Shown piece by piece: positions 2,457 through 64,000 of a stretch of DNA of 64,000 nt. Position numbers and translations under genes: made by a program. Source of the DNA: Methyloligella sp. (lineage in GTDB: Bacteria > Pseudomonadota > Alphaproteobacteria > Rhizobiales > HXMU1428-3); the NCBI GenBank assembly GCA_021604645.1, contig BQJJ01000011.1:50371-114370 (forward strand), read 5' to 3'. The notes beneath the pieces were generated by a model. It made no database searches. It had not been told where the DNA came from and saw only the letters and a list, made by a program, of their open reading frames with translations. Numbering within the stretch: the stretch's first letter is position 1; every line of letters starts with the position of its first letter.

Positions 2457-2496
2457 CATTAAGCTTCAGCTCATAAAATAAATCGTGAGAAAGAGA
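2457..2496 (+). repeat. Degenerate 3'-end fragment of family A element
   Basis: TTAAGCTTCAGCTCATAAAATAAATCGTGAGAAAGAGA resembles the 3' end of the element at 2508-2711 (TGAGCTTCAGCTCATAGAATAGCCCGTGAGAGA). Confidence 0.5.
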
Positions 2497-2507
2497 AAAT
2501 CTAACAG

Positions 2508-2711
2508 TACGAAGAAGGGAGTGCTCTACTTCAGAGTACGGACATGACGCCAGCGCGGTTGTTAGTGGGCAAACTAAAGCTCAAATAAATGGCGTCCGGT
2601 GCACCAGATCAGCCCGAACGGAGCATAGCGAGTACGGATAAGCTGATCGTAAGAAAAGCACCGCCCCTCGGAGGCCTATGAGCTTCAGCTCATAGAATAG
2701 CCCGTGAGAGA
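2508..2711 (+). repeat. Family A multi-hairpin element, copy 1 (carries two internal insertions)
   Basis: TACGAAGAAGGGAG-[GTGCTCT..AGAGTAC]-GGACATGACGCC...GGCGTCCGGTGC...GCACCGCCCCTCGGAGGCC-[hairpin]-GAATAGCCCGTGAGAGA; same linkers as the copies at 5667, 37153, 41659 and 46043. Confidence 0.85.
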
Positions 2712-5666: not shown

Positions 5667-5779
5667 TATGAAAAAGGAGTTCAGCTCACTTCGGGCTGAA
5701 GGACATGGCGAAGCCCGGTGCGTTGCACCGCACCTCGTAGGCCCCAAGCGCCTTTCGCGCTTGGAATAGCCGTGAGAGA
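5667..5779 (+). repeat. Family A multi-hairpin element, copy 2
   Basis: ATGAAAAAGGAGT-[TCAGCTC acttc GGGCTGA]-AGGACATGGCGAAGCCCGGTGCGTTGCACCGCACCTCGTAGGCC-[CCAAGCGC..GCGCTTGG]-AATAGCCGTGAGAGA. Confidence 0.88.
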
Positions 5780-26056: not shown

Positions 26057-26285
26057 AAGCCCCATGAACCAATTACGGAACAGAAGGCTTTTCTTTCATA
26101 TTTCAAAAAACAAAACTACATAGGGCCTAGACCCCTAGCTGCTAGGTCCATACTTGAGATCTGTTTCATCAACAAGCAGGAAACCGCTTTGCGCAGGTCA
26201 GCGATTTTTTCTAAAGCCAAATCATTAACTTTAAACTCACCCAAACTCTTAACAAGGTCAGACCAGGCCACAACGTCTTTAAACG
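26057..26285 (-). pseudogene. Decayed partial duplicate of the 3' end (plus terminator) of the iron ABC transporter substrate-binding protein gene at 27003-28136
   Basis: Minus strand reads KDVVAWSDLVKSLGEFKVNDLALEKIADLRKAVS then frameshifts (1-nt deletion) relative to EGVAWSDLVKSWGEFKADDLALDKIAELRKAASLLVDETDLNNGPSS*; flanking AAAAAAGCCCC..GGCTTTTC hairpin also duplicated. Confidence 0.85.
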
Positions 26286-26952: not shown

Positions 26953-27002
26953 TAAACAAGATAATCAAAGTCAAAAATATAAAAGGGACTAGTCCTTAGT
27001 CC

Positions 27003-28136
27003 CTAGCTGCTAGGTCCGTTATTGAGGTCTGTTTCATCAACAAGCAATGAAGCCGCTTTGCGCAATTCAGCGATTTTGTCTAAAGCCAAATCATCAGCTT
27101 TAAATTCACCCCAGCTTTTCACAAGGTCAGACCAAGCCACACCTTCTTTAACAGGATATTCAAAGTTCACTTTTGAATAAATCTGCTGAGCTTTTTCAGA
27201 TGATAAAAATTCCATCAATTTAACAGCAGCTTCTTTGTTCGGTGCATGTTTCGCCAAAACCATACCAGACAAATTCACATGAGCGCCGCGCGTTTTGGTA
27301 TTTGGGAAAAGCAATTTAACTGAAGCAGCCCATTTTTTCTGTTCAGGCTTTTTCTCATTATTTTGCATTTTGCCCATATAATAAGTGTTACCAATCGCCA
27401 AATCACATTGGCCAGCAAATACAGCTTTAATCTGAGCCCGATCATTGCCAGAAGGTTTGCGAGCTAAATTCGCTTTTAAACCCTTAAGCCATGTCTTGGT
27501 TTTCTCAGTACCGTTATGAGCAATCATAGACGCAATCATCGCAACATTATAAACATGCTGCCCAGAGCGCATGCAAATTTTACCGCGCCATTTAGGATCA
27601 GCCAACTCTTCGTAACTAATCGCATCTTGGCCAACACGATCCTTAGAAGCATAAACAACCCGAGAGCGAACAGTTAGACCAAACCAGTCACCTTTCGCAC
27701 TTCTGTATTTCGCAGGAATATTGCCTTCAATAGCTGAAGATTTAACCGGTTGAGAAATTCCTTTTTCAACGGCTGCAGATAAACGACCAATATCAACGGT
27801 TAGCAGTACATCAGCTGGGCTTAATTTACCTTCAGCTGCAATTCGCTCGATTAGACCTTTTTTCGCAAAAATAACTTTAGTTTGAATGCCAGTCTGTTTG
27901 GTGAATTCTTCCAAAAGCGGCTTAACCAAATATGGCTGGCGATAGGAATAGATATTCACAACGCCCTTCTCAGTTGCGGCTTTGTCAGCAGCATGAGCTT
28001 CAGTAGCTAAAAAAGTTGAATTTGAGAAAGAGGAGAGAGAAACAACGCCAAAAGTGGCAACAACAAGAGAGTACGAACAAGCTTTAAGCTTACGCTTAAG
28101 AAGCGCAGCAGGAAATAAAAACATATTTTCCTCCAA
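27003..28136 (-). CDS. Fe(3+) ABC transporter substrate-binding protein (FbpA/FutA-like)
   Basis: GVVNIYSYRQPYLVKPLLEEFTKQTGIQTKVIFAKKGLIERIAAEGKLSPADVLLTVDIGRL...CDLAIGNTYYMGKM. Confidence 0.92.
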   Translation of the reverse strand: MEENMFLFPAALLKRKLKACSYSLVVATFGVVSLSSFSNSTFLATEAHAADKAATEKGVVNIYSYRQPYLVKPLLEEFTKQTGIQTKVIFAKKGLIERIAAEGKLSPADVLLTVDIGRLSAAVEKGISQPVKSSAIEGNIPAKYRSAKGDWFGLTVRSRVVYASKDRVGQDAISYEELADPKWRGKICMRSGQHVYNVAMIASMIAHNGTEKTKTWLKGLKANLARKPSGNDRAQIKAVFAGQCDLAIGNTYYMGKMQNNEKKPEQKKWAASVKLLFPNTKTRGAHVNLSGMVLAKHAPNKEAAVKLMEFLSSEKAQQIYSKVNFEYPVKEGVAWSDLVKSWGEFKADDLALDKIAELRKAASLLVDETDLNNGPSS

Positions 28137-37152: not shown

Positions 37153-37303
37153 TACGAAGAAGGAGTGGCACCACTTCGGTGCCAGGACATGGCAGCAGGG
37201 CTGCCCGGCGCTTAGCGCCGCACAGTGCGGTTGCTAGTGGGCAACCCAAGCACAGCTAAAATGGAGGCCCATGAGCTTCAGCTCATGGAATAGCCGTGAG
37301 AGA
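37153..37303 (+). repeat. Family A multi-hairpin element, copy 3 (with a family B element inserted)
   Basis: TACGAAGAAGGAG-[TGGCACC acttc GGTGCCA]-GGACATGGCAGCagggGCTGCC (overlapping) CGGCGCttaGCGCCGCac-[B]-GGAGGCC-[CATGAGC ttca GCTCATG]-GAATAGCCGTGAGAGA. Confidence 0.9.
37225..37262 (+). repeat. Family B hairpin element inside family A copy 3
   Basis: GTGC-GGTTGC-TAGTGG-GCAACC-CAA-GCAC-AGCTAAAAT. Confidence 0.8.
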
Positions 37304-41658: not shown

Positions 41659-41773
41659 TACGAAGAAGGGAGTGCCCTTTCAGAGGCACGGACATGACGC
41701 CTTAAGGCGTCCGGCGCAAGCGCCGCCCATCGGAGGGCTTTTCGCTGTTTTAGCGAAAAATAGCCCGTGAGAC
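41659..41773 (+). repeat. Family A multi-hairpin element, copy 4
   Basis: TACGAAGAAGGGA-[GTGCC..GGCAC]-GGACATGACGCCttaaGGCGTCCGGCGCaaGCGCCGCCCATCGGAGGGC-[TTTTCGCT..AGCGAAAA]-ATAGCCCGTGAGA. Confidence 0.88.
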
Positions 41774-41936
41774 AAAAAAGTGTTTCGTCAATCCTAACAA
41801 AAGCAACGCGCTCTAGCCCCCTAACTATGCCCCAAGGCAGGTTTTTCTGCAATCAACTTATAAACTTGACGCCACACCATTTTCAATACACTGTGCCGAG
41901 CTTCAAAGTGACATTTATTAAGATGATGAATAAAAC

Positions 41937-46042: not shown

Positions 46043-46160
46043 TACGAAAAAGGAGCTCAGCCCATTTCGGGCTGAGGGACATGGCAGCAGAGCTGCCCGG
46101 CGCGTTGCGCCGCTCCTCGGAGGCCCAAGCGCTTTAAGCGCTTGGAATAGCCGTGAGAGA
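46043..46160 (+). repeat. Family A multi-hairpin element, copy 5 (cleanest copy)
   Basis: TACGAAAAAGGAG-[CTCAGCCC atttc GGGCTGAG]-GGACATGGCAGCagaGCTGCCCGGCGCgttGCGCCGCTCCTCGGAGGCC-[CAAGCGC ttta GCGCTTG]-GAATAGCCGTGAGAGA. Confidence 0.92.
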
Positions 46161-58388: not shown

Positions 58389-59276
58389 TTAGCTTACTGT
58401 TTTCTTCAACAAACGATTACGAATTTCATCAAGCTGCTCAAAATTCGTATAGCGAATGCGTAACTCGCCATTCTCACCAGAACCTAATTTAACCTGAACC
58501 TTCAGACCTAATGAATCAGTAAGCTCTTTTTCAAATGCTTTTGTATCCGCATCTTTTTCACGGCCCTTAGTAGATTTTCCTTGAGCACCTTTTAATCCAG
58601 TCTGCACAAGTGCCTCAGCATCACGAACGCTTAAGCCTTTAGAAATAATCTCTTTTACATAGTCTTCAGCATTTTCAACACCAACCAAACACCGAGCATG
58701 TCCTGCAGAAATTTCACCCGAACGGACAAAGCCTTGAATGCTTTCAGGCAATTTCAACAAACGAAGCATGTTCGCCACATGAGAGCGAGACTTACCAATC
58801 ACACTTGAAAGTTCATCTTGCGTATAACTAAACCGATCAACAAGTTCCTGATAGCCAAGAGCTTCCTCAACAGCATTAAGGTCAGCACGCTGAACATTCT
58901 CAATAATCGCAATCTCAAGCAATTGGCGATCTGTTAAGTCTCGAACAACAACAGGAACTGATGCCAACTCTGCCATCTGCGAAGCACGCCACCGGCGCTC
59001 ACCAGCAACAATTTCAAACCCACCTTCAAGACCATTTGATGGACGAACAATAAGCGGCTGCACAAGTCCCTTAGTACGAATAGAATTCGCCAAATCTTCA
59101 AGATCAGCATCCACAAAATCTTTACGAGGGTTTAAATGAGACGGGCGAACCTGTTCAATCGGAACAACACGGTGTTCACCTTCAGTTGGTAAAGGCGTTC
59201 CTTCAGAAGGGGCCACATCCCCAATTAAAGAAGCAATCCCGCGACCTAATCTATTCTTTTGTGCATTTGCAGACAT
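58389..59276 (-). CDS. parB: Chromosome partitioning protein ParB
   Basis: RLGRGIASLIGD; HRVVPIEQVRPSHLNPRKDF; IVAGERRWRASQMA; IENVQRADLNAVEEALGYQELVDRF. Confidence 0.98.
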   Translation of the reverse strand: MSANAQKNRLGRGIASLIGDVAPSEGTPLPTEGEHRVVPIEQVRPSHLNPRKDFVDADLEDLANSIRTKGLVQPLIVRPSNGLEGGFEIVAGERRWRASQMAELASVPVVVRDLTDRQLLEIAIIENVQRADLNAVEEALGYQELVDRFSYTQDELSSVIGKSRSHVANMLRLLKLPESIQGFVRSGEISAGHARCLVGVENAEDYVKEIISKGLSVRDAEALVQTGLKGAQGKSTKGREKDADTKAFEKELTDSLGLKVQVKLGSGENGELRIRYTNFEQLDEIRNRLLKKTVS

Positions 59277-59381
59277 AAAAGCCTCTGCCTTTCTTTTTAT
59301 TCTTATAAATCAGTCACTTATGTGACATAAACTCATAATTTCCCGTAGTCTTAAAACAAATTACTAATGTCCTTTAAGGAC

Positions 59382-60227
59382 TTAAGCAGCCATATATTTT
59401 TTCTCACGCTCAATAATTTCAGACGCCAGCTTAATATAAGAATGCGCCCCCGATGACTTGTGATCGTAAAGCAAAATCGGCTGACCAAAACTCGGTGCTT
59501 CCGCAATACGAATGTTGCGAGGGATCACTGAGTTATAAACCTTGTCACCAAAGAAGTTTCGAACCTCACTCGCCACTTCATTAGAAAGGTTAGTGCGCCC
59601 ATCATGCATGGTCAAAACCACACCTTGAATATAAAGATCAGGGTTCACAGCCGCCCGCACTTCTTCAATTGAATTAGCTAATTGAACAATCCCCTCAAGC
59701 GCAAAAAACTCACATTGCACCGGCACCAAAATAGATTGCGCTGCTGCCATTGAGTTAATGGTCAATATGTTCAAACTAGGTGGACAATCAATGAGCACAT
59801 AGCTAATGCGCTCCTCTTTCACCTTTGCAGCTTCTGCAATCTGTAACCGCGAAATCGCTTCGCGCAAACGAAACGCCCGGTCAGGAACACCGGCCAATTC
59901 AGCTTCTAATCCAGCCAAATCTTGTGTGGAAGGAACAACAGAAAGTCCAGGCACCCGCGTTTGCACACAAGCCTGAGTTAGTAACGCCTCACGGCGCAAC
60001 ACATCACAAACAGAAACAGAGCGCTGATCTTCATCAACCCCAAGTCCCGTACTCGCATTTCCTTGTGGGTCAATATCAATAATGATAACCCGCTCACCCA
60101 CAGCGGCAAGCGCAGTACCTAAATTAATTGCTGTGGTTGTTTTGCCAACACCGCCTTTTTGGTTGGCCAATGCCATAACCCGCACGTTCTGCGGCTCATT
60201 AGCTGGTGAAGAGATCTGTCCGTTCAC
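59382..60227 (-). CDS. parA: Chromosome partitioning ATPase ParA
   Basis: VMALANQKGGVGKTTTAINLGTALAAVGERVIIIDIDPQGNASTGLG. Confidence 0.98.
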   Translation of the reverse strand: MNGQISSPANEPQNVRVMALANQKGGVGKTTTAINLGTALAAVGERVIIIDIDPQGNASTGLGVDEDQRSVSVCDVLRREALLTQACVQTRVPGLSVVPSTQDLAGLEAELAGVPDRAFRLREAISRLQIAEAAKVKEERISYVLIDCPPSLNILTINSMAAAQSILVPVQCEFFALEGIVQLANSIEEVRAAVNPDLYIQGVVLTMHDGRTNLSNEVASEVRNFFGDKVYNSVIPRNIRIAEAPSFGQPILLYDHKSSGAHSYIKLASEIIEREKKYMAA

Positions 60228-60254
60228 CGGAATGCTCCTTTAATCAGGCCGCTA

Positions 60255-60354
60255 TGCGTATCTCTTTTCAAAGTAATTCCCTCTTTTGGGAATAGCCCGG
60301 TTGCCATTTTGAGCTAACAAAGTGGGCAACTGAAGCACAAATAAAAGATACGCA
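60255..60354. repeat. Nested palindromic segment between parA and rsmG, including a B-like hairpin
   Basis: Outer TGCGTATCT...AGATACGCA; inner AATTCCCtcttttGGGAAT-AGCCC and GGTTGCC...GTGGGCAAC-TGAAGCACAAATAAAA. Confidence 0.6.
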
Positions 60355-60363
60355 AAATAAAGT

Positions 60364-61002
60364 TTACGACCTCGGTTTAATATCATTAAGTTTAACTATG
60401 CGCCCCAAAGGATCGGTCAAACTTTCATAAGTCTCGTGACTAAAGTCCCAATCCTGTGATGCCTCTTCAATCTCTGCACGAGTGCCCTTTCCTTTAAGAA
60501 ATACACCTTTTGCTCCCTTTTCAAAAAGGGCTTGTCCAAAAGTCAAAAGAGTATTTAGAGGTTTTAGAGCTCGTGCAGTTACAACATCGATAGATTGGAT
60601 GGTACTCTCAATTGCAAAAACTTCAATTCTACAATTATGTATTTCCACATGCGCGCCAGTTTGCCTGGCAACATCCTTTAAAAACGAGCACTTACGAGAA
60701 TTGGATTCGACCAAATGAACACAAGAACCGTGTTTCTCCATGAGTAAAATGCCCAAAACAAGCCCGGGAAAGCCACCACCAGCCCCCATATCGACAATAA
60801 TTTTCGCCGAATCAAGATGATTGAGGACCTGTGCGCTATCAGCAAAATGCCGATGCCAAATCTCATCTAAGGTATTAGGTGCTACTAAATTCTGCGCTTT
60901 CTGCCACTTGATAAGCAGAGTTTCATAAAGTTTTAACCGCTCAACTGTTTCACGTGAAACATCAAACTGCTTCTGAAACTCTTTAGGCCCCGAAATAATC
61001 AC
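60364..61002 (-). CDS. rsmG: 16S rRNA (guanine527-N7)-methyltransferase
   Basis: FDVSRETVERLKLYETLLIKWQKAQNLVAPNTLDEIWHRHFADSAQ; IVDMGAGGGFPGLVLGI. Confidence 0.97.
   Translation of the reverse strand: MIISGPKEFQKQFDVSRETVERLKLYETLLIKWQKAQNLVAPNTLDEIWHRHFADSAQVLNHLDSAKIIVDMGAGGGFPGLVLGILLMEKHGSCVHLVESNSRKCSFLKDVARQTGAHVEIHNCRIEVFAIESTIQSIDVVTARALKPLNTLLTFGQALFEKGAKGVFLKGKGTRAEIEEASQDWDFSHETYESLTDPLGRIVKLNDIKPRS
60946..60961. promoter_or_regulatory. parS site, perfect 16-mer
   Basis: TGTTTCACGTGAAACA. Confidence 0.95.
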
Positions 61003-61264
61003 CCGCCGCTACTATCCTCTAAATTTTCAATCTTAATTTATGAAAGGAGCTATATCACATCTTAAGGCAACATATGTAATTTAAGTAGCTTCTCCTGGTG
61101 GTTTGCAGGAAAAATTCAGCGAAAATAAAGTCTGGAAAATTTCACGAGGCTGACAATATTGAGTATTAGATGTGGCCCTTAAATTATCGCCAAATAATTA
61201 TACAATTCCGGCTGCAAATAGATCTAGAATGTTTATAACCTGATATCGATAGGAATTAATTGAC

Positions 61265-61561
61265 ATGGAAACAGTTTTTACATTCATACAACTAGTTATA
61301 ATACCTGTTATGGCTGTTTCTATGTTTATAGCTCCATGGATTCAATCTATTTACAAACTATTAGGGGAAATAAAATCCGTTATTTTTTTAGCATTAATAT
61401 TGGTGATTCTACATATTATAGAATTTATTATTGCTGATTTAACTGTGCCAGCAGCTGGGCTTGCAACATTTTTTTCCGGAATCATTTGCTTCGGTTTGTT
61501 TATTTTAGCACTAATACTAGCAATATTTGCACAATCCAGACACTTAAACCAGAAAAAGTAA
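61265..61561 (+). CDS. Small hypothetical membrane protein (98 aa)
   Basis: ~3 hydrophobic segments; ORF intact; opposite strand to rsmG/mnmG. Confidence 0.5.
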   Translation: METVFTFIQLVIIPVMAVSMFIAPWIQSIYKLLGEIKSVIFLALILVILHIIEFIIADLTVPAAGLATFFSGIICFGLFILALILAIFAQSRHLNQKK

Positions 61562-61639
61562 ATTTCTATTTTTGGTACAAAAGCGGCCCCATAAAGCACA
61601 GCATCACGCCACTATCTGATACTATCTAAATAAACAAAA

Positions 61640-61655
61640 TGTTTCACGTGAATCA
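61640..61655. promoter_or_regulatory. parS-like site, one mismatch
   Basis: TGTTTCACGTGAATCA. Confidence 0.85.
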
Positions 61656-61686
61656 TAAACAAGGCCCAAGAGCCCATACCCAACCT

Positions 61687-63627
61687 CTAAGCTGATCGTT
61701 TATCAGAAGCAGTAGCCTTCATTTTACCAGCCCGTTTCAAATGAGCCAAAACCAACATAAGGGCAGCTGGCGTCATTCCATCAATACGCCCAGCTTGCGC
61801 CAAAGTCTCAGGGGCATTTTTTGCAAGCTTAGTTCGAAGCTCCGTTGAAAGCCCTGAGATACCTTCATAAGAAAAGCCAGCAGGAATAGACAACGCCTCA
61901 TCACGGCGAAGAGCTGCAATATCCGCATCTTGGCGCTCCAAATAAACCGCATAGCGGGCTTCGATAATAACCTGTTCAGCTATGCCATCCTCTAAAGACC
62001 CAATTTCAGGCCAAATAGCTGATAAATCTGCCAATGAGACACCCTTATATGAAAGCAATTCAAACGCCGTCCGATGGCGTCCATCCTTCTTGATGGAAAT
62101 TCCGTGGTTTTCAGCCTCATTAGGCGTTAAACTCAGAGATTTAAGAAGATCAATACCCTTCGAAATCTGAGCTTGTTTCACGTGAAACAATGATGCTCGC
62201 TCATCACTAACGAGCCCAAACTCAATACCAACAGGCGTTAAACGCTGGTCAGCATTGTCAGAACGCAAGCGAAGCCGATATTCAGCGCGAGATGTAAACA
62301 TACGATAAGGCTCGGTAACACCTCTGGTGACAAGATCATCAATCATGACCCCCATATACCCATCAGCCCGGCTAATCTTAAACTCTTTATCTGATCCATT
62401 CGCTTTCAAGCCTGCATTAACACCAGCAATTAAGCCCTGAGCTCCAGCTTCTTCATAGCCAGTTGTTCCATTAATTTGTCCAGCTAGAAACAAACCAGGG
62501 ATCTTTTGAACTTCTAACGTTTGAGAAAGCTCACGTGGATCAACATAATCATACTCAATGGCATAACCCGCCTGAGCAATACGAACATCCTCAAGCCCCT
62601 TCATCGTCTTTAAGAAGGCAAGCTGTACGTCCTCTGGTAATGATGTTGAAAGCCCGTTGGGATAAATAAGCTCACTAGTGAGCCCTTCAGGCTCTAAAAA
62701 CACCTGATGAGCTGACCGTTCTTTAAAACGCACCACCTTATCCTCAATAGAAGGGCAATAACGCGGTCCAACACCTTCAATTTGCCCCGTATACATAGGT
62801 GCCTGATCCAAATTAGAAGTAATCAGCTCATGCGTTTCTTCATTAGTATGAGTGATATGACAGCTAATCTGCGGTGTTGTGATCTCTGAATTCAAGAACG
62901 AGAAAGGCTCAGGCGGATTATCACCTGGCTGTTCTTCTAAGATCTCCCAATTTATAGATGCTTTATAAAGCCTTGCAGGTGTCCCTGTCTTAAGGCGGCC
63001 AATACGTAAGCCAGTATCATAGAGCCGGTCAGCCAGTTTAATCGCTGGCGCTTCACCAATTCGCCCAGCAGGCGTGCGCTCAGTACCTCGGTGAATTTCA
63101 CCGCGAAGGAACGTCCCCGTTGTCAAAACAACAGCACCAGCTCTATAAGTTTCACCATCAGCGGTAATTACACCAACACAAGTGCCATCTTCAATGAGCA
63201 AATCATCAACCGGCTGAGCTACAACAAACAGATTGTCCTGCGCCAATATCCCTTCTTGCATAGCAGCGCGGTATAATTCACGGTCAGCCTGGGCACGTGG
63301 ACCTTGCACAGCAGGCCCTTTCGAGCGGTTAAGAACACGAAATTGAATACCAGCCTTATCAATAACACGCCCCATCAAACCATCAAGCGCATCGATTTCG
63401 CGTACCAGATGTCCTTTACCCAATCCACCAATCGCAGGATTACATGACATCTCACCAATCGTCTCAAACTTATGAGTAATGAGCGCTGTCTTTGCGCCCA
63501 TGCGCGCTGAAGCACTGGCCGCTTCTGTTCCAGCATGACCACCACCAACAACAATCACATCAAAAGATACATCACCTGATACGATGTCTTTGTGAGAACC
63601 TGGCTCAGTGAGCAAAGTCATATGCAA
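61687..63627 (-). CDS. mnmG: tRNA uridine-5-carboxymethylaminomethyl(34) synthesis enzyme MnmG
   Basis: [74 protein letters not shown]. Confidence 0.98.
62174..62189. promoter_or_regulatory. parS site, perfect 16-mer, inside mnmG coding sequence
   Basis: TGTTTCACGTGAAACA. Confidence 0.95.
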
Positions 63628-63954
63628 AATCCTTAATTTAAAAAGTAATCTGGAAACTGGATTTAACTATATAAGAGTTATGTATCTCTAAAGTTATAAA
63701 TTCCAAGCAGTTTCAAATTTCGAGCCAATACAACGCCATTATAAATGATAAAGAATGTAGGCAATTGTATATCTACAAAGCTCAAGAAACCGTCTTTATA
63801 TTCTAACAATGGGAAGCAATCAACCAATCGCTCAAAATCAAGCCTATGTCAGGATTCAGAAAACAAAAGAATTCAACAAACATTTAATTAATCAACGTTC
63901 AATTAAATGATACGGAAATCCTCTCTAATGTATTTGTTTTCTACCTGTCTATAA

Positions 63955-63970
63955 TGTTTCACGTGAATCA
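63955..63970. promoter_or_regulatory. parS-like site, one mismatch
   Basis: TGTTTCACGTGAATCA. Confidence 0.85.
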
Positions 63971-64000
63971 TAATGTTCTAAACTATCGCTACAACTAACA

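What the first reader, a model, noticed from the sequence alone, without database searches (positions are those of the whole stretch)
2541..2663. Family A copy 1 carries two independent insertions, each within a hairpin loop
Relative to copy 4 (GACGCC-ttaa-GGCGTC), copy 1 has GACGCC-[agcgcggttgttagtgggcaaactaaagctcaaataaat]-GGCGTC, a family B unit in the HP2 loop. Relative to the others (CGGYGC-ntta-GCRCCG) it has CGGTGC-[accaGATCAGCccgaacggagcatagcgagtacggataaGCTGATCgtaagaaaa]-GCACCG, a different ~55 nt palindrome ('C') in the HP3 loop. Both insertions preserve the host stem.
Basis: seen in the sequence. Interest (0 to 1): 0.75.

Follow-up and report, generated by a model that had tools for sequence, protein, structure and literature searches.

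The report
Hairpin repeats nested inside hairpin loops
This marine bacterium carries hundreds of tiny hairpin-shaped DNA repeats of three families that sit inside one another's hairpin loops, almost all point the same way relative to DNA replication, and swap hairpins between copies, with no recognised enzyme found to move them.

Summary
Copy 1 (window 2511-2710) is a four-hairpin repeat 'A' with a 39-nt 'B' unit in the HP2 loop (2552-2590) and a 55-nt 'C' palindrome in the HP3 loop (2603-2657), both host stems intact. In sister genome G002 (89% identical overall, about 93% at this locus) the same A copy has both loops empty. Genome-wide this is a system of three families. There are about 155 A, 275 B and 61 C hits in the sequence fetched. 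About 50 C hits lie in the loop of one specific hairpin (HP3). B sits in loops of A, of other B units and of C. All three families lie on the same replication strand in 96-97% of copies (the lagging strand, anchored at the parS cluster in the window). A's stems covary strongly, and the four hairpins of a copy reassort independently. B occurs without A, so the families are separate. No Y1 transposase or reverse transcriptase was found in sister G002, so neither seems to be needed as a resident gene. Best reading: tiny non-autonomous hairpin elements that enter hairpin loops exposed at the replication fork, with content also spread by exchange between A copies. The enzyme is unknown. Nested palindromes and hairpin mini-elements are known; this organisation is a new variant.

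The parts
2511..2710 (+). Repeat A, copy 1 (GAAGAAGG ... GTGAGAG), interrupted by B and C
   Evidence: sequence; family of about 155 loci; orthologous copy in G002
2521..2539 (+). HP1 of A (GTGCTCT / AGAGTAC)
   Evidence: covarying helix 1
2546..2551 (+). 5' arm of HP2 (GACGCC)
   Evidence: helix 2
2552..2590 (+). B unit inserted in the HP2 loop
   Evidence: empty loop in G002; B family 275 hits
2591..2596 (+). 3' arm of HP2 (GGCGTC)
2597..2602 (+). 5' arm of HP3 (CGGTGC)
   Evidence: helix 3
2603..2657 (+). C palindrome (GATCAGC / GCTGATC stem) inserted in the HP3 loop
   Evidence: C hits lie at A-model positions 71-77, the HP3 loop; empty loop in G002
2658..2663 (+). 3' arm of HP3 (GCACCG)
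2676..2695 (+). HP4 of A (CTATGAGC / GCTCATAG)
   Evidence: helix 6
2462..2490 (+). Remnant of the 3' half of an older A copy, upstream of copy 1
   Evidence: direct repeat D15
5670..5779 (+). A copy without insertion; G002 and G003 carry a B just downstream of theirs
37160..37303 (+). A copy with a B at the CTC site between HP3 and HP4
41698..41805 (+). A-like copy with an empty HP4 loop; the G002 orthologue has a B in that loop
   Evidence: C11:92068-92230
46046..46160 (+). A copy without insertion; HP2 and HP4 differ wholesale in the G002 orthologue
58389..63627 (-). parB, parA, gidB (rsmG), gidA (mnmG), with parS-like sites at 60944, 61638 and 63953: the origin-proximal cluster that fixes the replication direction

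Best explanation
A, B and C are three separate families of non-autonomous hairpin elements. B (about 40 nt) and C (about 55 nt) move into loops of DNA hairpins that form on one strand when it is single-stranded at the replication fork. C recognises one particular loop, HP3 of A. B uses loops more widely: HP1-HP4 of A, the loop of B itself and the inner loop of C, besides plain intergenic sites. The result is Russian-doll nesting up to three deep (A holding C holding B). Shown: loop positions, recurrence, intact stems, occupied/empty pairs between sister genomes, strand orientation, near-identical recent B and C copies. Inferred: that insertion itself is coupled to replication and acts on single-stranded DNA, and that an unidentified trans-acting enzyme does it. 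Content is also spread secondarily by exchange of whole hairpins between A copies; hairpin swaps between orthologues are shown, their mechanism is not.
For: Locus test: G002 has the same A with both loops empty. Other occupied/empty pairs: C in the HP3 loop at C11:33041 (own empty, G002 occupied), B in the HP4 loop at C11:92093, B downstream of A at C11:56067, B alone in an intergenic site at C11:61001; B array plus A absent in own but present in OFTM213. Specificity: 43 of 61 C hits meet a strict HP3-loop rule and 9 more do by eye. At least 11 B-in-B nestings, all in the same orientation and none antisense, against 2 expected if the two half-B flanks were independent. B inside C in about four copies. 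Orientation: A 151/155, B 265/275, C 59/61 on the strand with A>T; fork direction from gidA-gidB-parA-parB-parS in the window; gene strand balanced 52/48. Separate families: B in G005 with no A found, and G001 with 59 A but 3 B. Recent mobility of B and C: nearest neighbours up to 100% and 98%.
Against: No mobilising enzyme was found. Y1 was not found in G001-G007, RT is missing from five of eight genus genomes, and IS110 was found only in G002. Many B copies (about 180 of 275 by this rule set) are not in a recognised loop, and standalone B flanks are only slightly more complementary than random sites (14% against 8% with a stem of 5 or more). At many HP4 sites B replaces the 3' arm instead of sitting in the loop. 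No clear target-site duplication was seen. The strand test on mismatches is mixed: A favours folding of the sense strand (28 G.T against 9 A.C), B the opposite.
Confidence: 0.5

Rival explanations
1. No transposition into loops today. B and C entered A copies rarely, and the present pattern comes from ectopic gene conversion or fork template switching between A copies, with crossovers in the short conserved linkers, so that whole hairpins with or without their inserts are exchanged. Copy 1 could then have received HP2+B and HP3+C from a copy such as C2:103566.
For: Hairpins of the same A copy are unlinked across 51 copies (Mantel r -0.06 to 0.10) while the arms within a hairpin correlate at 0.80-0.95. 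Orthologous A copies differ by whole hairpins while linkers and flanks match (C11:14448, 48356, 96333). HP2+B plus HP3+C also occurs at C2:103566.
Against: B and C also occur outside A, B occurs in a genome where no A was found, B nests in B and in C, and near-identical B copies sit at unrelated sites. Conversion cannot create those.
Confidence: 0.28
2. Insertion is random and the loop pattern is selection: A is functional and only inserts that keep its stems survive.
For: A's stems are under strong pairing constraint (94.6% of cells paired, 21 of 34 pairs with compensatory change), and inserts usually keep the stems.
Against: C sits in the HP3 loop about 50 times and hardly ever in the other loops, which tolerate B. 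B-in-B nesting needs no selection on A. Many HP4 inserts destroy the 3' arm and yet persist.
Confidence: 0.1
3. RNA-mediated retroposition: A, B and C are transcribed and their A-rich 3' ends are tails copied back by a reverse transcriptase.
For: All three end in A-rich runs (GAGAGAAAA, CACTAAAAA, CAAGAAAA); A behaves like a structured RNA on its sense strand.
Against: No RVT_1 gene found in G001, G002, G003, G005 or G007, of which G002 is 99% complete with 201 B and 145 A pattern matches. Orientation follows replication, not genes.
Confidence: 0.07
4. Classical REP/RAYT or IS200/IS605-type mobilisation by a Y1 HUH transposase.
For: Hairpin elements, replication-strand bias as known for IS608 (PMC6006769), and two Y1 genes in the own genome.
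Against: The own Y1 genes carry a different flanking repeat (AATTACGGTGACAG). No Y1 found in seven congeners, including the copy-rich ones.
Confidence: 0.05

Closest known systems
Short palindromic repeats of Volvox carteri organelle DNA (PMC2670323)
   Same: Palindromic elements of about 50 nt, intergenic, often inserted within one another to give composite repeats; no mobiliser established
   Different: Organelle DNA of a eukaryote; as read here, not described as loop-specific between distinct families, replication-oriented, or reassorting hairpins
REP sequences and REPINs with RAYT/TnpAREP, including REP dimers inserted within longer palindromes (PMC3733652, PMC6006769)
   Same: High-copy hairpin repeats in intergenic DNA; some REP dimers sit inside other palindromes; the IS200-type machinery works on the lagging-strand template
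   Different: A is about 115 nt with four hairpins; B and C are not inverted pairs; no cognate Y1 gene found; orientation about 97% fixed to replication; one element specific for one loop of another family
Small dispersed repeats of cyanobacteria (Elhai et al. 2008, Genome Res 18:1484; cited in papers read, full text not held)
   Same: Very small mobile repeats, tens of nt; insertion in stem-loops is from memory, a lead only
   Different: Different phylum and sequences; loop specificity and strand bias could not be compared
Double-hairpin elements of Allomyces mitochondria (Paquin et al. 2000; cited in PMC2670323)
   Same: Mobile double-hairpin mini-elements (title and citation only)
   Different: Mitochondrial; not compared at sequence level
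IS110-family elements targeting REP loops (IS621, ISPpu10; from memory)
   Same: Insertion into the loop of a repeated hairpin
   Different: Those encode their own recombinase; B and C are 40-55 nt and non-coding; IS110 was found in G002 only among the genus

Membership tests
REP / RAYT (TnpAREP) system | Cognate Y1 transposase gene flanked by the same repeats | tested here: not met
   Own Y1 genes flanked by AATTACGGTGACAG repeats, not A, B or C; no PF01797 found in G001-G007
REP / RAYT (TnpAREP) system | GTAG/GTGG tetranucleotide 0-2 nt 5' of the hairpin (definition in PMC6006769) | tested here: inconclusive
   B read on the opposite strand has AGTG or GTGG at the foot of its hairpin in many copies, but the outer stem and tag overlap and vary
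REPIN / BIME | Pairs in inverted orientation | tested here: not met
   Copies are co-oriented, tandem arrays are direct
IS200/IS605-type non-autonomous element | Replication-strand orientation bias | tested here: met
   96-97% on one replication strand for A, B and C
IS200/IS605-type non-autonomous element | Y1 HUH transposase available in the genome | tested here: not met
   Not found in seven congeners, several rich in A, B and C
Retroelement / group II intron-derived | Reverse transcriptase in carrier genomes | tested here: not met
   PF00078 not found in G001, G002, G003, G005, G007
IS110 (bridge RNA) passenger | IS110 recombinase in carrier genomes | tested here: not met
   PF01548 in G002 only among eight genus genomes
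Known Rfam RNA (Atu_C8 and others) | Match at gathering score | tested here: not met
   None in the window besides a tRNA; one full-length sub-threshold hit to Atu_C8 (17.2 of 50 bits) not repeated in other A copies, and no Atu_C8 hit in the own genome
Small dispersed repeats (Elhai) / RIME / ABC elements of rhizobia | Sequence or structural identity with published consensus | not testable with these tools
   Primary papers not held

The most novel reading that the evidence does not exclude
A dedicated but unknown system inserts tiny hairpin elements into loops of hairpins that form at the replication fork, with loop-level specificity, and hairpins behave as exchangeable cassettes that reassort freely between about 150 dispersed copies: in effect a genome-wide recombining population of hairpins driven by a non-Y1, non-RT mechanism.
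Probability: 0.3. Interest if true: 0.85.

Novelty: new variant of a known kind. Interest (0 to 1): 0.62.

Why it matters
How REP-like and other tiny repeats spread is an old open question. Here a bacterial genus offers many replicate events: an element that chooses one hairpin loop about 50 times, three levels of nesting, near-fixed orientation to the fork, empty and occupied sites in close sister genomes, and independent reassortment of hairpins between copies. That makes two ideas directly testable: that hairpin loops formed at the fork are insertion targets, and that short repeats exchange modules by template switching. It also argues that such spread need not depend on a resident Y1 transposase or reverse transcriptase.

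Tried and rejected
RAYT/REP partner: Y1 genes in the own genome have their own repeats and none was found in congeners. RT: missing from most carriers. IS110: only G002. Known RNA family: the Atu_C8 hit was sub-threshold and not reproduced. Orientation explained by gene direction: gene strand is balanced 52/48. KOPS-like GGGNAGGG polarity: not informative (12 against 11). Standalone B inside cryptic palindromes: only weak enrichment. The C seed pattern at two mismatches is not specific outside the genus. A first regex for B-in-B was too strict and found none, replaced. In one search the G.T and A.C totals are double-counted for the GT and AC keys; the corrected totals are 28 and 9. The automatic site classification undercounts the CTC and HP3 sites; I read the junctions by eye.

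Full report
1. The observation. The window is contig 11 (C11:50371-114370) of a 3.57 Mb genome in 27 contigs, 99% complete. Relatives with the same repeats are marine-type Hyphomicrobiales MAGs. Repeat A runs from GAAGAAGG (2511) to GTGAGAG (2710); a 39-nt B unit lies in HP2 (2552-2590) and a 55-nt palindrome C in HP3 (2603-2657), with both stems intact.

2. Not ancestral parts of A. HMM searches of about 0.7 Mb around known copies give about 155 A loci, 275 B hits and 61 C hits. Most A copies are 105-121 nt without insert. About a third hold C in HP3, and a handful hold B in HP2. Sister genome G002 (89% identical over 109 kb) has the same A copy at this locus with GACGCC-ACAA-GCGTC and GGTGC-GTT-GCGCC, i.e. 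both loops empty, and a B at another point. G003 lacks the A entirely, with a 14-nt direct repeat at the ends of the extra segment in our genome. Polarity is clear for B by parsimony (no other genome compared has it). It is open for C, because the A at this locus in the more distant G006 also has C in HP3.

3. The loop rule. Nearly all C hits abut A-model positions 71-77, which is the HP3 loop. A strict flank rule accepts 43 of 61 hits, and reading the remainder adds nine. B is found in loops of HP1 (antisense), HP2, HP3 and HP4, at the CTC segment between HP3 and HP4, and 28 times just 3' of A. In many HP4 cases B replaces the 3' arm. B is also found in the loop of other B units: at least 11 cases, all same-oriented and none antisense, against two expected if left and right half-B flanks were independent. 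About four C copies have a B in their inner loop, one of these C copies itself lying in HP3 of an A. Two-way occupied/empty pairs between own and G002 include C at C11:33041, B in HP4 at C11:92093, B 3' of A at C11:56067 and B alone at C11:61001. OFTM213 carries a B array plus A where our genome has an ordinary short intergenic sequence.

4. Separate families. B occurs in all eight genomes of the genus (3 to 201 pattern matches) and in one of 53 others (a single match); G005 has 16 B with no A found, G001 has 59 A and 3 B. B and C have near-identical copies at unrelated places (up to 100% and 98%), while no two full A copies exceed 87%. B and C look recently mobile; A looks older or faster-changing.

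5. Orientation. On contigs classed by AT skew, 151 of 155 A, 265 of 275 B and 59 of 61 C lie on the strand with A>T. Genes are balanced between strands. In the window, gidA-gidB-parA-parB on the minus strand with parS sites place the origin to the right, so the plus strand, which carries A, B and C here, is the lagging strand; negative GC skew agrees. The direction rests on the standard alphaproteobacterial layout of this cluster (established knowledge), not on a mapped origin.

6. Structure and reassortment. On 51 uninterrupted A copies the proposed stems pair in 94.6% of cells against 27-44% when slid; 21 of 34 pairs show changes on both sides, and the covariation score is 0.406 against 0.145 shuffled. 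Yet the hairpins of one copy carry no information about one another: Mantel r between hairpins -0.06 to 0.10, against 0.80-0.95 between the two arms of a hairpin. Orthologous A copies in G002 differ by whole hairpins while the linkers and genomic flanks match, for example at C11:14448, 48356 and 96333. Hairpins therefore behave as exchangeable cassettes. Mismatches in A stems favour G.T over A.C on the sense strand (28 to 9), suggesting that this strand folds; B shows the reverse. I treat this as a hint only.

7. Mechanism. Best-supported: non-autonomous hairpin elements enter hairpin loops that are single-stranded or extruded at the fork, in one strand sense, using an unidentified trans-acting activity, and A copies further exchange hairpins among themselves. 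Loop position, nesting, orientation and empty sites are shown; fork coupling and the enzyme are inferred. Conversion alone cannot explain B outside A, B in B, or B in a genome without detected A. Tolerance alone cannot explain why C chooses only HP3. Y1 was not found in seven congeners, and the two Y1 genes of our genome sit in a haemagglutinin-like locus with their own repeat AATTACGGTGACAG. RT is missing from five of eight genus genomes, including G002. IS110 was found only in G002. These absences rest on Pfam sensitivity and assembly completeness.

8. Known relatives. Palindromes inserted within palindromes are described for Volvox organelles (PMC2670323), REP dimers within longer palindromes for some bacteria (PMC3733652), and lagging-template single-strand transposition for IS608 and ISDra2 (PMC6006769). 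The cyanobacterial small dispersed repeats (Elhai 2008) are probably the nearest bacterial precedent, but the paper is not held. A has no Rfam family; the one weak Atu_C8 hit was not reproduced. I found no description of this combination: one element specific for one loop of another, a genome-wide fixed replication orientation, and unlinked hairpins. Only openly licensed papers could be searched.

9. Verdict. Observation confirmed; interpretation partly supported (the inserts are real and the families separate; independence in this copy and the RAYT link are not shown). New variant of a known kind, interest 0.62.

Noticed in passing
window 58389-63627 and 60944-63973: parB-parA-gidB-gidA cluster with three parS-like sites: the origin-proximal region of the chromosome lies at the right end of the window.
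   Followed up: partly
G002 C2, at the position matching own C11:92725 (window about 42355): A 101-nt insertion present only in G002 holds a C-like palindrome with a different stem (GCACAAT/ATTGTGC), suggesting C is a wider family with exchangeable outer stems.
   Followed up: no
L243 5335-9800 (C1:11335-15800): Two RAYT-like Y1 transposase genes inside a haemagglutinin/CDI-like locus, each flanked by AATTACGGTGACAG repeats of their own.
   Followed up: partly
A loci in own and relatives, e.g. window 41698-41805: An A variant has GGGC/GCCC instead of GGC/GCC around HP4 (CCCATCGGAGGGC ... AATAGCCC), a compensated change in the otherwise conserved linkers.
   Followed up: no
A-model positions 78-84, all copies: The residue before CCTCG covaries with the one after it (ACCTCGT, CCCTCGG) although the two are six nt apart, hinting at an extra pairing exclusive with CTC/GAG.
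   Followed up: no
contigs C1, C5, C6, C9, C10, C14, C15 against C2, C3, C4, C8, C11, C13: GC skew is near zero on half the contigs and about 0.13 in size on the others, while AT skew stays strong on all, and C3 changes along its length (near 290 kb).
   Followed up: no
window 26133-26282 and 27001-27151: Two adjacent duplicated stretches (46 and 103 nt, 86-91% identical) spaced about 869 nt apart.
   Followed up: no
G018 and G057 (other families of the order): 24 and 5 matches to A's conserved 3' end outside the genus, so A or a relative may occur more widely.
   Followed up: no
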